A DNA stretch of 64,000 nt, from NCBI GenBank assembly GCA_029856105.1, contig JAHQWH010000155.1:1-64000 (forward strand), written 5' to 3'. The position numbers and the translations under genes are program-made. A model generated the notes under the pieces. That model was not told the DNA's origin. It did not search any database and saw only the letters and a list, made by a program, of their open reading frames with translations. Shown here piece after piece: positions 8,461 to 51,353 of the stretch; the stretch's first letter is position 1; the number at the start of each line of letters is the position of its first letter. This stretch comes from Promethearchaeia archaeon (lineage in GTDB: Archaea > Asgardarchaeota > Lokiarchaeia > Sigyniarchaeales > SOKP01).

Positions 8461-9507
8461 TTACCAACGCCAATAAATGTCTTCAGCGTGTCCTAACATC
8501 TTTTCAATACGAATCTTTTCTCCATTATCTAAAATTAAATCACCAGAATAAAAACCATGCATCAAAGATGAGTTAAGATAAATTAATCCAAAATTCATTT
8601 TTTCGCGATGTGATATGATAGGTTCCAAAACCATATTAAACCTATTATCGTTGCTCGTAAACTTCCAGGGCATTGTAGGATCTCTGTTTTTGTGATGAAA
8701 TATAACCTCATCAATTTTATGAGCTTTTCCATCGTAGAAAATGATGTTTTCCGTATGGGTTGCCCCTTCTTTACTACCGACTGAACCGAAACCATAGCCA
8801 ATGTTAAAAGCAACTGGTACTCCAGAGACAAGGCCGCAGCCAGAACCCCAGAGCCAATGCGTTTTATAAGGCCATATCCCGCGTCCCCAATCCATGAGGC
8901 CAAAAGATGTTTCAGGTTCAAAACCATATGATTTATCACCAATAGTAATAGAGCCTTCTGCAGGCATGTAGTTAATCTTATGGTTATAGTAAAACAACTT
9001 TGGGTCGTCATACCCAGTAACGACCACAGTATTATCCATTTTTTGGTCGTCATGGAGTGTAATTGAACCTTTTATCCCCTTATTTTGAAAGGAGGGGTCG
9101 TCAATAGTAAGAATTCGTTTATTGCCTTGTTTCGAGATAGTAGCGTTAAATTTTTTGGTTGGAAACTCAATCACGCTGTCTTCTAAAGAGTTTAAGGGAA
9201 GAACTTTAGATTTTGTAAAGAATTTAAACAAGCCTTTGCCATCTCTTTTAATGTTTTTAAAATCGAGCCATACATAACTCATTTGAGTCAAATACCCTAT
9301 ATCTCCTATAGTTAACTGAAATCCAAAGTCCTTGTTTAACACAGAAAAATGGTCCCATTCTTTTATTCTCGTCCAACCTTTACCTATTTTTTCCTTATTG
9401 TATTTTAATAAAGGTTTTCTTGCCCATCCGCGTTGAACAAGCGAACCATCGTCGTTAAATAGGTTTGAGGGTTCTATTATCTCATTTTGATTACCCATAT
9501 CTTTCAC
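8461..9507 (-). CDS. DUF2804 family protein
   Basis: This 348-residue protein shows the aromatic, glycine-rich signature of the DUF2804 family: GLMDWGRGIWPYKTHWLWGS (near residues 205-224), followed by GYGFG and a C-terminal half rich in beta strands that ends in DIYWRW. The family is predicted to have a lipocalin or AttH-like beta-barrel fold and has no established activity. No signal peptide or membrane segment is visible. The gene converges on the glycyl radical activase and is about 110 bases downstream of the class III aminotransferase on the same strand; the meaning of that pairing is unknown. Confidence 0.8.
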   Translation of the reverse strand: MKDMGNQNEIIEPSNLFNDDGSLVQRGWARKPLLKYNKEKIGKGWTRIKEWDHFSVLNKDFGFQLTIGDIGYLTQMSYVWLDFKNIKRDGKGLFKFFTKSKVLPLNSLEDSVIEFPTKKFNATISKQGNKRILTIDDPSFQNKGIKGSITLHDDQKMDNTVVVTGYDDPKLFYYNHKINYMPAEGSITIGDKSYGFEPETSFGLMDWGRGIWPYKTHWLWGSGCGLVSGVPVAFNIGYGFGSVGSKEGATHTENIIFYDGKAHKIDEVIFHHKNRDPTMPWKFTSNDNRFNMVLEPIISHREKMNFGLIYLNSSLMHGFYSGDLILDNGEKIRIEKMLGHAEDIYWRW

Positions 9508-9620
9508 TTTAAATTTGTTTAAGAATATTAATATTTCGAGTTTCGAGAAAATAAAGTTTTTTGTTTGTGTGTTTTGTTTGTTTTTCCTACTGCTAAAAAT
9601 TGTAAAAAAATTATGTAATA

Positions 9621-11018
9621 TTATTCTATTTGCTGACAGATACGGTCTATTTTTTCGATTGTTCCGTCTACAATTTCGTCAGAGTGGAGAATACACATGT
9701 AAAATCTACTTCCAGCTACGGAAATTATTTCTTGATCCACTAAAGCGGCACCCATATATTCCATAAACTTTTTCCTTAACGGGAGTTGCCCTACCTGGTC
9801 AGAAATGTCAAAACTTAAACCAAAAAGGCACGAAGTATGAAAGTGAACTGTACCACCAAGATTATATGAAAACCACGGTAATTCATATTTAGCGAAAACT
9901 TCATTTAGTCCATTTGCTAATCGGGCTCCTGCCTTTCCAGCCTTTTCCGTTGCACCCGTTTCCTCAACTAACTTCATTGCATGATAAGCAGCGGCACATG
10001 TTAAAGGATTTGCTGCTATTGTCCCTCCACTATAAGCTCTTTTGCCACCACCTACTCCTGCTGCACAAAAGCGCATTATCTCTTCCTTTCCACCAATCGC
10101 GGCTGCAGAAGGATATCCATGTCCTACAATTTTCCCAAAAACAGACAAATCAGGAGTATAACCGTAATATGCTTGACCCCCACCCATATGCAACCTAAAA
10201 GCGCACACAACTTCGTCTGAAATCAATAATGCTCCATTTTCATGGCACAATTCTTCTATTTCTTTATTGAAACCAGGTCTTACGGGATTGGCTCCTGACT
10301 CGCCCCCCATAGGTTCGATGATTACGGCAGCTACTTTGCGCTTCTCCTTAAACATCTTGCGCAATACATCAATGTCGTTGGGAGGGCAGGAATCCATCCA
10401 TTTATATATAGATTTTGGAATCCCATGTGATTCTAATAATTTTGTACCGGGCACATGCATGTCGTAAACCAATTGATCTGACCATCCGTGATAACTGCCA
10501 CCTATTTTAATAACCCATTTACGATTTGTAGCAACTCTGGCAATCCTTATAGCAAGCATATCAGCTTCTGTTCCTGTTTGGAGCCATCTTATAACTTCAC
10601 AAGATGGAAAATGTTTCTGAAGTTCTTCAGCAGCAAGATATTCGTATTCGTTAGTTATTCCATGACATGGTCCAATATCCCTAATAACTTCGATAACCTT
10701 TTCCGTCAAAACCGGATGATTATGACCAAGGATAATTGGTCCTCCGTCCATTAAATAGTCAGTTAGAACGATATCATCAACAGTCTCCATGTAACAGTCA
10801 AAAACGCGCTTACTAGCTAAGGGAAAGGGATAATTAAAAGCGAGATTATGTTCAACCCCTCCGGGTATGATTTTCCTAGCTCTTTCAAAAGCCTCTTTAG
10901 ATTTCTTGTGATTTTTTTCGTATCTCTCAACGATTCCCTTCAATTCATCGGGTTTAAATTTGCTAATAGGCAAATCAACAATATTTTTAATTTTAGCTAT
11001 TTTTTCCTCATATTCCAT
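9621..11018 (-). CDS. Class III PLP-dependent aminotransferase (glutamate-1-semialdehyde aminomutase-like)
   Basis: This 465-residue protein has the class III fold: a substrate loop near residue 53 (PGGVEHN), GTEADMLAIR at about 149-158, the PLP-contacting ISDEVVCAFR (D268) and the Schiff-base lysine in FGKIVGHGYP (K296). The arrangement resembles glutamate-1-semialdehyde aminomutase and related amino-sugar or beta-amino-acid aminotransferases. It is not clearly HemL: the active-site motif GHGYP departs from the usual GGG-P, and no haem genes are near. It is divergent from the FGGY kinase gene, so a role in breakdown of an amino-substituted carbon source is possible but speculative. Confidence 0.85.
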   Translation of the reverse strand: MEYEEKIAKIKNIVDLPISKFKPDELKGIVERYEKNHKKSKEAFERARKIIPGGVEHNLAFNYPFPLASKRVFDCYMETVDDIVLTDYLMDGGPIILGHNHPVLTEKVIEVIRDIGPCHGITNEYEYLAAEELQKHFPSCEVIRWLQTGTEADMLAIRIARVATNRKWVIKIGGSYHGWSDQLVYDMHVPGTKLLESHGIPKSIYKWMDSCPPNDIDVLRKMFKEKRKVAAVIIEPMGGESGANPVRPGFNKEIEELCHENGALLISDEVVCAFRLHMGGGQAYYGYTPDLSVFGKIVGHGYPSAAAIGGKEEIMRFCAAGVGGGKRAYSGGTIAANPLTCAAAYHAMKLVEETGATEKAGKAGARLANGLNEVFAKYELPWFSYNLGGTVHFHTSCLFGLSFDISDQVGQLPLRKKFMEYMGAALVDQEIISVAGSRFYMCILHSDEIVDGTIEKIDRICQQIE

Positions 11019-47151: not shown

Positions 47152-47418
47152 ATGGCAAATGTAAAATTAAATAATAAAAGCCTATTAGAGAAATTACAAG
47201 CAAAAGTCACTCTAAAATTAGGAAAAAAAATCTCTCAACAAGAGATATTAGATAATAGTATTGAATTTGCGTATAACCGACTTGACGAATTCATTTCTGA
47301 AAAGATTGATCATCCTCCAATCACTGACGATTTAATTAAGAAGATAAAAGAAAATGCAATTGATGCGCCTTTAATGCATCCGGAAAAATCTGATGACGAA
47401 TTAATATACGGGTTATGA
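47152..47418 (+). CDS. vapB: VapB-like antitoxin
   Basis: This 88-residue protein has a helical N-terminal region (LLEKLQAKVTLKLGKKISQQEILDNSIEFA) of the kind found in ribbon-helix-helix or AbrB-related antitoxins and an acidic C-terminal tail ending in ELIYGL. It lies 31 bases before a PIN-domain gene in the usual antitoxin-toxin order. I infer that it binds and blocks the toxin. The family is not certain. Confidence 0.6.
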   Translation: MANVKLNNKSLLEKLQAKVTLKLGKKISQQEILDNSIEFAYNRLDEFISEKIDHPPITDDLIKKIKENAIDAPLMHPEKSDDELIYGL

Positions 47419-47449
47419 AAAAAGAATTAAGACATTTATAGGGTAAACA

Positions 47450-47866
47450 ATGACAATCATAATTGATTCAAATTATTTATTTGCTTTAAAATCGAAAAAA
47501 GATAGAAATCACAAAAGAGCATTTGAATTATTCAAAGAACTTAAAAAAGATTCTATAAAACCATTAATTACCAATAATTTAGTCGTAAGTGAAATCTTTA
47601 CTTTAACCAATTCAAGATATAAAGGAAATATTTATTATTTAGATAAATATTATGAATTAATTTGGGGGCAAGAAAATTTTTTCAAGATTATTCAATTAAA
47701 ATCTGAAGAATTTAAAGATGTTTATAAAATATTAAAAAAATATACAACTCCTAAACGGTTATTAAGTTTTGTGGATGCTTCTTTAATATTTTTATATAAA
47801 AAATTCAATGCTAAAGCAATTTTATCCTTTGATAATCATTTCGATGGGATTATTTTACGATTATAG
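47450..47866 (+). CDS. vapC: VapC-like PIN-domain ribonuclease toxin
   Basis: The 138-residue protein is a PIN domain: IIIDSNYLFALK at the start (first Asp), a central NNLVVSEIFTLTN with the conserved Glu, then SFVDASLIFL and ILSFDNHFDG, giving the usual acidic cluster (D, E, D, D). VapC proteins cut tRNA or rRNA when free. The genes are 31 bases apart with a probable common promoter. A mobile-element origin is possible but nothing around it shows one. Confidence 0.82.
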   Translation: MTIIIDSNYLFALKSKKDRNHKRAFELFKELKKDSIKPLITNNLVVSEIFTLTNSRYKGNIYYLDKYYELIWGQENFFKIIQLKSEEFKDVYKILKKYTTPKRLLSFVDASLIFLYKKFNAKAILSFDNHFDGIILRL

Positions 47867-49468: not shown

Positions 49469-49957
49469 TTAATATTCAATACCAAGACGAGCTTTAATCC
49501 CTTTTGAAGAGTAGTAATGTTTAATCATTCTCATTTCAGTGAGTAAATCTGCACGCTCTTTAATTTTAGGATGCATCTTAGGTCCACCAGTTATAATTAA
49601 TTCAACTTTTTCAGGTTTATTATCAATCAATTTTAATACTTCGTCAAGTTTTACGATTCCATATTCGACAGCAACACCAATTTCGTCAAGAATAACGACA
49701 TCGTATTCGTCGCCCATAATCACCTTCTCTGCAAACTTCACGCCTTTTTTTCCTTCTTCAAAGTCAATTTCTCCAGGAGTTGCGATTAAATCTGGCGTTC
49801 CAAACTGTTTCAATTCGAAATTTGGAACCCCTTTTACAGCCGTAACTTCCCCATATTGAGGGTATCCTTTCATAAATTGAATCATATATACTTTATATCC
49901 ATGACCCGTAGCCCGAAAGCCTTGTCCTAAAGCCGCAGTGGTCTTGCCTATAGGCAT
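49469..49957 (-). CDS. cobO: Cob(I)alamin adenosyltransferase (CobO/CobA type), 3' part of an interrupted gene
   Basis: The 162-residue frame starts MPIGKTTAALGQGFRATGHG and continues VYMIQFMKGYPQYGE, VVILDEIGVAVEYG and LIITGGPKMH, the P-loop enzyme that adds the 5'-deoxyadenosyl group of ATP to cob(I)alamin. Only the second half of the P-loop is present. The missing N-terminus (GLVQVYFGRGK) lies upstream in another frame at 49960-50037, and removing exactly 29 bases (49949-49977) joins them into GRGKGKTTAALG. As it stands the protein has a broken nucleotide-binding loop and is probably inactive unless the segment is removed or bypassed. Confidence 0.85.
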   Translation of the reverse strand: MPIGKTTAALGQGFRATGHGYKVYMIQFMKGYPQYGEVTAVKGVPNFELKQFGTPDLIATPGEIDFEEGKKGVKFAEKVIMGDEYDVVILDEIGVAVEYGIVKLDEVLKLIDNKPEKVELIITGGPKMHPKIKERADLLTEMRMIKHYYSSKGIKARLGIEY

Positions 49958-49977
49958 TACTATTTTTTTATAGCAAT
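49949..49977 (-). other. 29-base segment interrupting the cobO P-loop
   Basis: Read on the minus strand, GGT CGG GGT AAA is followed by 29 bases and then GGC AAG ACC ACT. Deleting those bases restores GRGKGKTT exactly. The segment contains ATTGCTAT-A6-ATAGTAAT, an 8-pair hairpin with one G-U pair, in-frame stops TAG and TAA, an overlapping ATG, and GCCTATAGGC as a palindrome at its junction. Confidence 0.8.
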
Positions 49978-50037
49978 TTTACCCCGACCAAAATAAACTT
50001 GTACAAGGCCAACATTTAATCTTTTTCTTTCGACCAT
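49960..50037 (-). pseudogene. cobO: 5' fragment of the interrupted cobO gene
   Basis: ATG at 50035-50037 opens a 25-codon frame, MVERKRLNVGLVQVYFGRGK then IAIKK-stop. The first 20 residues match the N-terminus and first beta strand of CobO; the last five come from the interrupting segment. The stop TAG is 2 bases upstream of the ATG used for the 3' part. Confidence 0.75.
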
Positions 50038-50222: not shown

Positions 50223-51353
50223 ATGATTATGAGTTTAAACAACGAAAACATAGACCTGTATCGAAAATTACAGGAGCATCTTGATAAAATGCCATTAGGC
50301 TTTCCTTCAACAAAATCAGGATCTGATATTAAGTTATTAAAACGTCTATTCGCGCCCCAAGAAGCTAAAATTGCTACATTTTTAAAGTTTGGATGGGAGA
50401 GAGACCTTGAACCTTTATATACCATTTACGAACGTGCGAAAGAGACTGGAATCTCAAAAGAAGAATTAGAACAAGCTTTAGATAAAATGGTTCAAAAAGG
50501 ACTTCTTATGTTTAAAAGGAAGGCAGAAGAGAAATATTACGGTAATGCTTTACTCATGATTGGAATGTTTGAGTTCCAAGTAAACAAGCTCACAAAGGAA
50601 TTTATAGAAGATTTTCACGATTATTTTGGTAAAAAATGGCTTGCGGAAACTATAAAAGTGAAGGGTGCTCAATTACGGGTAATTCCAGTTGAGCAAAGTA
50701 TAGAATCCGGTCATAATGTTAGTACTTACGATGATGTCATAAAGCTTCTTGATACAACCGATGGACCATACATGGTAACTAATTGTCTTTGCAGGCAAAT
50801 AAAGGACATCTTAGAACAACCTTGTAAAGCGACTTCTAGGAGAGAATTATGTTTAGCTTTTGGATTTGCAGCAGAACTATATATAGAACAAGGATGGGGG
50901 CGTTCTATAAGTAAAGATGAAGTTCTTGAAATTCTACGAAAAAATGAGGAAGAAGGATTAGTGCTTCAACCTGACAACTCACAAAATTTAACAGTTATTT
51001 GTAGCTGCTGTAGTTGCTGTTGTGAAGGCTTATCAAAAATTAAATTATTACCAAATCCCGGAGATTTTACAATAACTAACTTTTACGCTGATGTGGAACC
51101 TGATCTATGCTCAGGTTGTGGAACTTGCGTTGAGATTTGCCCAATGGAGGCAATAACGCTCATTGATGATATATCCTCGATCGAGCGGAAACGTTGTATA
51201 GGATGTGGAAATTGTGTTATTAAATGTCCCTCTGAAGCAATTAAACTCCATAAAAGAAAAAGACAATTTATTCCATATCCGACAATGGATGATTTATTCG
51301 ATAAAATAATGGAAAGAAAAGTAAAACTTAAAGAAAAAGCTTTAGAAAGATAA
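50223..51353 (+). CDS. Ferredoxin-domain Fe-S protein with N-terminal helix-turn-helix-like region
   Basis: The 376-residue protein has a helical N-terminal half (50-100 with EREKAK-like and EELEQALDKMVQKGL, resembling a winged helix), a cysteine cluster CLCRQIKDILEQPCK (near residue 188), CSCCSCCC (near 260) and two C-terminal 4Fe-4S motifs, CSGCGTCVEICP and CIGCGNCVIKCP (about 300-345). It is likely to carry electrons in the cytoplasm. The redox partner is unknown; the OYE-like and DUF169 genes lie 0.8-2.7 kb downstream on the same strand. The start is ATG 50223. Confidence 0.82.
   Translation: MIMSLNNENIDLYRKLQEHLDKMPLGFPSTKSGSDIKLLKRLFAPQEAKIATFLKFGWERDLEPLYTIYERAKETGISKEELEQALDKMVQKGLLMFKRKAEEKYYGNALLMIGMFEFQVNKLTKEFIEDFHDYFGKKWLAETIKVKGAQLRVIPVEQSIESGHNVSTYDDVIKLLDTTDGPYMVTNCLCRQIKDILEQPCKATSRRELCLAFGFAAELYIEQGWGRSISKDEVLEILRKNEEEGLVLQPDNSQNLTVICSCCSCCCEGLSKIKLLPNPGDFTITNFYADVEPDLCSGCGTCVEICPMEAITLIDDISSIERKRCIGCGNCVIKCPSEAIKLHKRKRQFIPYPTMDDLFDKIMERKVKLKEKALER

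What the first reader, a model, noticed from the sequence alone, without database searches (positions are those of the whole stretch)
49949..49977. A 29-base segment cuts the P-loop of the cob(I)alamin adenosyltransferase gene, and its removal restores it exactly
On the minus strand, frame one reads MVERKRLNVGLVQVYFGRGK and then runs into a stop. Frame two reads MPIGKTTAALG and onwards through a normal CobO. The junction falls inside the Walker A motif: GGT CGG GGT AAA | 29 bases | GGC AAG ACC ACT. Deleting the 29 bases gives GRGKGKTTAALG, the expected CobO sequence, without changing any other codon. The segment carries an 8-pair hairpin (ATTGCTAT-A6-ATAGTAAT, one G-U), two stop codons and a new ATG. 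Possibilities are a recent inactivating insertion, a very short intron, translational bypassing or reinitiation, or an assembly artefact. A canonical bulge-helix-bulge was not found, though UUGC in the segment can pair with GCAA in the second exon and UGGUC with GACCA across the exons.
Basis: partly seen in the sequence, partly recalled or inferred. Interest (0 to 1): 0.85.

Follow-up and report, generated by a model that had tools for sequence, protein, structure and literature searches.

The report
Tiny mRNA introns in Lokiarchaeia
A 29-base piece interrupting a vitamin B12 gene in a Loki archaeon is very probably a miniature intron: the same gene is cut at the same spot in 17 related genomes, and similar 30-base introns, which look removable by the cell's tRNA-splicing enzymes, sit in at least two other named genes.

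Summary
In detail: 29 bases with stop codons interrupt the Walker A motif of cobO, and removing them restores GRGKGKTT. It is neither an artefact nor a recent pseudogene. 17 independently assembled Lokiarchaeial genomes in four genera carry a 29-31-base insert at exactly this site; close relatives lack it precisely; the exons are under purifying selection. With the cut one base from the stated one (same product), all 17 form the three-base bulge, a 4-bp exon-intron helix and an 8-bp inner helix with at most one mismatch; the inner helix shows compensatory changes. The same kind of 30-base insert was then found in glycerol kinase (own genome and two others), at three sites of a zinc alcohol dehydrogenase (one a perfect canonical hBHBh'), and in an unnamed gene. 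The genome encodes both subunits of a crenarchaeal-type splicing endonuclease, RtcB ligase, and tRNA genes with non-canonical introns. Best explanation: pre-mRNA introns removed by the tRNA-splicing machinery. In the literature searchable here, demonstrated archaeal mRNA splicing was confined to cbf5. No RNA evidence could be obtained. Translational bypassing is the main rival, and disfavoured.

The parts
49979..50037 (-). cobO exon 1: ATG to ...GGT CGG GGT AA (MVERKRLNVGLVQVYFGRG + first two bases of the Walker A Lys codon)
49950..49978 (-).
49469..49949 (-). cobO exon 2: third base of the Lys codon, then GKTTAALG... to the TAA stop
49981..49984 (-). 5' half of the central helix H (GGGU, exon 1)
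   Evidence: paired in all 16 distinct sequences
49952..49955 (-). 3' half of the central helix H (GCCU, intron -6 to -3)
49978..49980 (-). 5' bulge AA^A; predicted cut between 49979 and 49978
   Evidence: geometry; cleavage inferred
49970..49977 (-). 5' arm of the 8-bp inner helix (AUUGCUAU)
   Evidence: 5 of 8 pairs with compensatory double changes among relatives
49956..49963 (-). 3' arm of the inner helix (AUAGUAAU)
49949..49951 (-). 3' splice region AU^A; predicted cut between 49950 and 49949, in a larger loop rather than a strict 3-nt bulge

Best explanation
The 29-base segment is a pre-mRNA intron of the archaeal bulge-helix-bulge kind, in its relaxed HBh' (bulge-helix-loop) form. Inferred mechanism: the cobO transcript folds so that the end of exon 1 (GGGY) pairs with the end of the intron (GYYU) next to an intron hairpin; the two-subunit tRNA-splicing endonuclease of the cell cuts after the second base of the AA^A bulge and two bases after the central helix; the exons are joined by RtcB; the mRNA then encodes an intact CobO with a restored Walker A lysine. 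It is one of a scattered population of 29-31-nt introns in protein-coding genes of this Lokiarchaeial family. Shown: recurrence, exact restoration, conserved geometry, compensatory changes, other cases, genes for the machinery. Inferred: actual cleavage and ligation.
For: Same-site inserts of 29 (8), 30 (8) and 31 (1) nt in 17 MAGs of 4 genera, all with in-frame stops or frameshift, all restoring GRGKGKTT. Geometry AA^N + 4/4 central pairs + at least 7/8 inner pairs in 17/17; pair counts 96.9% against 33-57% when slid, 5 inner pairs with double changes, 0/500 shuffles. In G140 (L055/L125) only the BHB placement restores the invariant Lys. Exon dN/dS 0.05-0.29. Same kind of insert in glpK (3 genomes) and adh (3 sites; G127 carries a full hBHBh' with 7-bp outer helix) and an unnamed gene; geometry is best at one product-preserving placement each time. 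Endonuclease: catalytic subunit closest to Aeropyrum pernix 3p1z with aligned catalytic His and a loop aligned to its extra loop; second subunit lacks the His. RtcB present. tRNA genes with non-canonical introns.
Against: No RNA or peptide data. In the window itself the lowest-energy fold is not the BHB (4.3 kcal/mol better alternative; BHB is the minimum in 6 of 17), and folding is not unusually stable (z -1.1). The central helix varies only on one side, so it has no compensatory double change. The 3' bulge is replaced by a larger loop. adh site 1 has only 2-3 of 4 central pairs.
Confidence: 0.88

Rival explanations
1. Translational bypassing (hop): the ribosome takes off at AAA, skips the hairpin and lands just before GGC, as in T4 gene 60 or the 27-55-nt mobile byp elements of Magnusiomyces mitochondria.
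For: Short, hairpin-bearing, patchily distributed inserts of similar size in several genes look alike on the surface; in 5 of 17 cobO genes the landing triplet is AAA or AAG, and adh site 1 has Ile triplets at both ends.
Against: Take-off and landing triplets do not match in 12 of 17 cobO genes (AAA against ATA, ACA or AGA), nor at adh sites 2 and 3; in G140 take-off from AAT would put Asn in place of the invariant Lys. It does not explain the exon-1/intron-3' pairing kept in all 17 or the full hBHBh' in G127.
Confidence: 0.06
2. Pseudogene or insertion allele: cobO is inactivated and no intact protein is made.
For: The frame is broken in the genome; this genome has only one PF02572 gene.
Against: Inserts persist across divergences where dS exceeds 1 while the exons stay conserved (dN/dS 0.05-0.09 in those pairs); no second disabling change in any of 17; the same happens in glpK and adh.
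Confidence: 0.03
3. Assembly or sequencing artefact.
For: All sequences are MAG contigs.
Against: 17 MAGs from many studies and assemblers carry inserts with diverged sequence at the same site.
Confidence: 0.005
4. -1 ribosomal frameshift at A AAA AAA in the segment, giving a 10-aa insertion in the P-loop.
For: In the window the heptamer is in frame just before the stop.
Against: The A7 run is absent from all relatives; 30-nt inserts carry in-frame stops with no such site; an insertion inside Walker A should destroy it.
Confidence: 0.01

Closest known systems
cbf5 pre-mRNA introns of Crenarchaeota (Watanabe 2002; Yoshinari 2006; PMC2738675)
   Same: Short introns in a protein gene, often with a relaxed BHB motif, splitting the codon of a catalytic residue, patchy gain/loss, tied to a hetero-tetrameric endonuclease; some are 33-39 bp and keep the frame
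   Different: Different genes (cobO, glpK, adh, an unnamed gene), different phylum (Lokiarchaeia), near-uniform 29-31 nt, several genes and sites in one family; cbf5 itself is uninterrupted in all 64 Loki-family genomes with a match
Archaeal tRNA BHB introns (hBHBh' and HBh')
   Same: 4-bp central helix, 3-nt bulge cut 2|1, same enzymes; this genome has them, also at non-canonical positions
   Different: Host is an mRNA; the exon strand of the helix is coding sequence
Putative 12-bp introns in an archaeal virus (Peng et al., as cited in PMC2738675)
   Same: Tiny insertions in protein genes proposed to be BHB introns
   Different: 12-bp units, frame-keeping, splicing not shown; here stops and frameshifts make removal necessary
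Magnusiomyces byp elements / T4 gene 60 hop
   Same: Short hairpin-bearing inserts in coding genes, patchy
   Different: Need matching take-off and landing codons, which fail here

Membership tests
Archaeal BHB (relaxed HBh') intron | Central 4-bp helix between exon 1 and the intron's 3' part | tested here: met
   64/64 cells paired in cobO against 14-72% when slid; one-sided changes only
Archaeal BHB (relaxed HBh') intron | 3-nt 5' bulge next to an inner intron helix, cut 2|1 | tested here: met
   17/17 AA^N then at least 7/8 pairs; 5 pairs with compensatory changes
Archaeal BHB intron, strict hBHBh' | Second 3-nt bulge and outer exon-exon helix | tested here: not met
   cobO: larger 3' loop, outer UGGUC/GACCA not contiguous. 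Met only at adh site 2 of G127
Archaeal BHB intron | Excision restores a conserved reading frame | tested here: met
Archaeal BHB intron | Host encodes a suitable endonuclease and ligase | tested here: met
   two PF01974 subunits, one with and one without the catalytic His; closest structure 3p1z; RtcB
Archaeal BHB intron | Cleavage and ligation of the transcript | not testable with these tools
   no RNA data held
Translational bypass element | Matching take-off and landing codons | tested here: not met
   identical or synonymous in 5/17 cobO genes only
Group I / II or spliceosomal intron | Ribozyme core, or spliceosomal sites with a branch point | not tested
   29-31 nt is far too short for a ribozyme; no spliceosome is known in archaea (general knowledge)

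The most novel reading that the evidence does not exclude
The window shows one copy of an active population of near-uniform (~30 nt) introns that are gained and lost repeatedly in protein-coding genes of Lokiarchaeia, perhaps by reverse splicing into mRNA at sites whose exon sequence can pair with the intron end, followed by return to DNA: a small mobile mRNA intron system in relatives of the eukaryotes' ancestor.
Probability: 0.35. Interest if true: 0.93.

Novelty: new variant of a known kind. Interest (0 to 1): 0.82.

Why it matters
Demonstrated mRNA splicing in archaea has rested on one gene, cbf5, in Crenarchaeota (PMC2738675). Tiny introns in several metabolic genes of Asgard archaea, the group nearest to eukaryotes, would show that the tRNA-splicing machinery maintains mRNA introns there, that open reading frames of Asgard genomes are being mis-annotated as broken, and that gain and loss of such introns can be studied in closely related genomes. 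It says nothing directly about spliceosomal introns, whose mechanism is different.

Tried and rejected
De novo scan of the window for HBh' structures joining ORFs: too many false positives, and cobO itself missed because exon 1 is only 20 codons. A stop/frame scan over about 2.4 Mb of relatives' DNA gave many antisense and low-complexity hits; only cobO, glpK, adh and an unnamed gene survived flank filters. Energy of single folds was not decisive for the window. ARAGORN with bacterial settings missed the intron-bearing tRNAs; Rfam found them. cbf5 as a guess at another intron host: no insert.

Full report
WHAT IS THERE. On the minus strand the cobO gene starts at 50037 and reads MVERKRLNVGLVQVYFGRGK, then runs into stops; the rest of CobO lies in another frame from 49948. 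It is the only PF02572 gene of the genome. Removing 29 bases yields GRGKGKTTAALG and a full-length family match. Two excisions, shifted by one base, give the same DNA product.

IT IS CONSERVED. Searching PF02572 in the genus found cobO in 21 of 24 genomes; 13, the window included, have an insert of 29 or 30 nt at the identical place and 8 have none. A phylum-wide search added four genomes of three other genera in the same family, with 29, 30, 30 and 31 nt. The match list of that search was cut, so absence outside the family is likely but not proven. A named collection showed the records to be Lokiarchaeota MAGs from many projects. Every unspliced reading meets a stop or loses the frame; every spliced one gives VYFGRGKGKTTAA.

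STRUCTURE. With the cut after GGNAA, all 17 show: four bases of exon 1 (GGGY, once AGGC) paired with intron bases -6 to -3 (GYYU); a three-base bulge AA^A (once AA^T); and an inner helix from intron base 2 with at least 7 of 8 pairs. On the alignment (16 distinct rows) 96.9% of cells pair, against 33-57% when the partner is slid by one to three columns; five inner-helix pairs change on both sides and no shuffle of 500 reaches the covariation score. The central helix alone is 100% paired against 14-72% slid, but changes only on one side. Exon codons fit: Arg codon third base G in 16 of 17 intron genes against 6 of 33 intronless rows; Gly codon GGY in 17/17 against 24/33; relatedness of the sequences is not controlled there. 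Random 30-nt windows of related coding sequence reach 4 central and at least 7 inner pairs in 0.06% of trials with four placements allowed. The 3' side is a loop larger than the canonical bulge; UGGUC/GACCA of the two exons can close it. This is the relaxed HBh' or bulge-helix-loop form. Energy gives weak support: it is the minimum in 6 of 17, and 4.3 kcal/mol above it in the window.

ONE INFORMATIVE GENOME. In G140 (L055, L125) the codon before the gap is AAT; only excision at the BHB position gives the invariant Walker A lysine (AA|A), while a ribosomal hop from AAT would give Asn.

OTHER CASES. A comparison of about 2.4 Mb from relatives found three more interrupted genes. Glycerol kinase in the window's own genome (contig C191, L284): 30 nt with a stop inside GITNQ^RET; also in G003 and, with a quite different intron sequence at the same site, in G126; the other orthologues whose alignments span the site report no internal stop. 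Zinc alcohol dehydrogenase: site 1 CGI^CGSD in four genomes, site 2 CGSD^VHM in G127, site 3 VGAQ^GHSG in G127 and G131, all 30 nt; most relatives uninterrupted. Site 2 of G127 is a textbook hBHBh': outer helix AUGUGGG/UCCACAU, bulges AU^U and AU^G, central helix UCGG/CCGA, inner helix UUUUUGAA/UUCAAAAA. A small gene of unknown family in G145 carries the same intron in two copies. Among product-preserving placements one fits the geometry best at each site: glpK 3/4 and 4/4 central pairs, adh site 2 4/4, site 3 3-4/4, the unnamed gene 4/4, adh site 1 2-3/4.

MACHINERY. The genome has two PF01974 proteins. One is closest to the Aeropyrum pernix catalytic subunit (3p1z, E 3e-34): its His aligns with the position that is Ala in the mutant 3ajv, and its segment FFGSPLGISKPR aligns to the YYGQPLDVEKPR loop region. 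The other lacks the His. This predicts an (alpha-beta)2 enzyme. A crenarchaea-specific loop with a conserved lysine has been linked to relaxed substrate recognition (PMC12397907). RtcB is present. tRNA genes carry introns, some at non-canonical positions.

EVOLUTION. On a tree of 50 cobO rows the intron needs 8 changes by parsimony (5 forced by well-supported branches), and sister genes differ in its presence (L090/L093, L094/L096, L123/L115). Intron genes are under purifying selection. Repeated precise loss, repeated gain, or gene exchange cannot be told apart here.

VERDICT ON MECHANISM. Recurrence, restoration, geometry, covariation and machinery make a BHB-type pre-mRNA intron the best explanation. 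What is missing is any transcript. Bypassing is the only rival with some appeal; its codon-matching rule fails in 12 of 17 cobO genes.

LITERATURE. PMC2738675 states that splicing had been confirmed for no archaeal gene other than cbf5 and discusses relaxed motifs and a catalytic-residue codon split by the intron. [quoted passage not shown] subscription papers and preprints are not held, so priority is not established. The review of recoding in archaea PMC8211752 describes ribosome hopping from T4 gene 60 and Magnusiomyces mitochondria in the passages found.

Noticed in passing
G000:C191 about 8897-10492 (L284): Glycerol kinase of the window's own genome is interrupted by a 30-nt insert with a stop in the GITNQRE motif; same intron class.
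   Followed up: yes
L340 (G127): One alcohol dehydrogenase gene carries two 30-nt introns at different sites, one with a complete canonical BHB.
   Followed up: partly
G145:C1 337364-337807 and 690773-691390: Two copies of a small gene without Pfam match carry the same 30-nt insert (SCNL^CAVTF); part of one copy is masked.
   Followed up: partly
L070, L072, L074, L076: tRNA genes of this genome have introns, some outside the anticodon loop; one tRNA has two.
   Followed up: partly
G004:C38 about 176600-179000; G145:C1 about 1056400-1058800: HdrA/MvhD-like genes with in-frame TGA at Cys-like positions, probably selenocysteine, as reported for Lokiarchaeota.
   Followed up: no
49956-49977: The A7 run of the window's intron loop is broken by T or C in all close relatives (AAATAAA, AAATCAA).
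   Followed up: no
47152-47866: Two adjacent small ORFs on the plus strand look like an antitoxin / PIN-domain toxin pair by eye.
   Followed up: no
50223-51353: Divergently oriented neighbour of cobO encodes a protein with two ferredoxin-like CxxCxxC clusters, read by eye.
   Followed up: no
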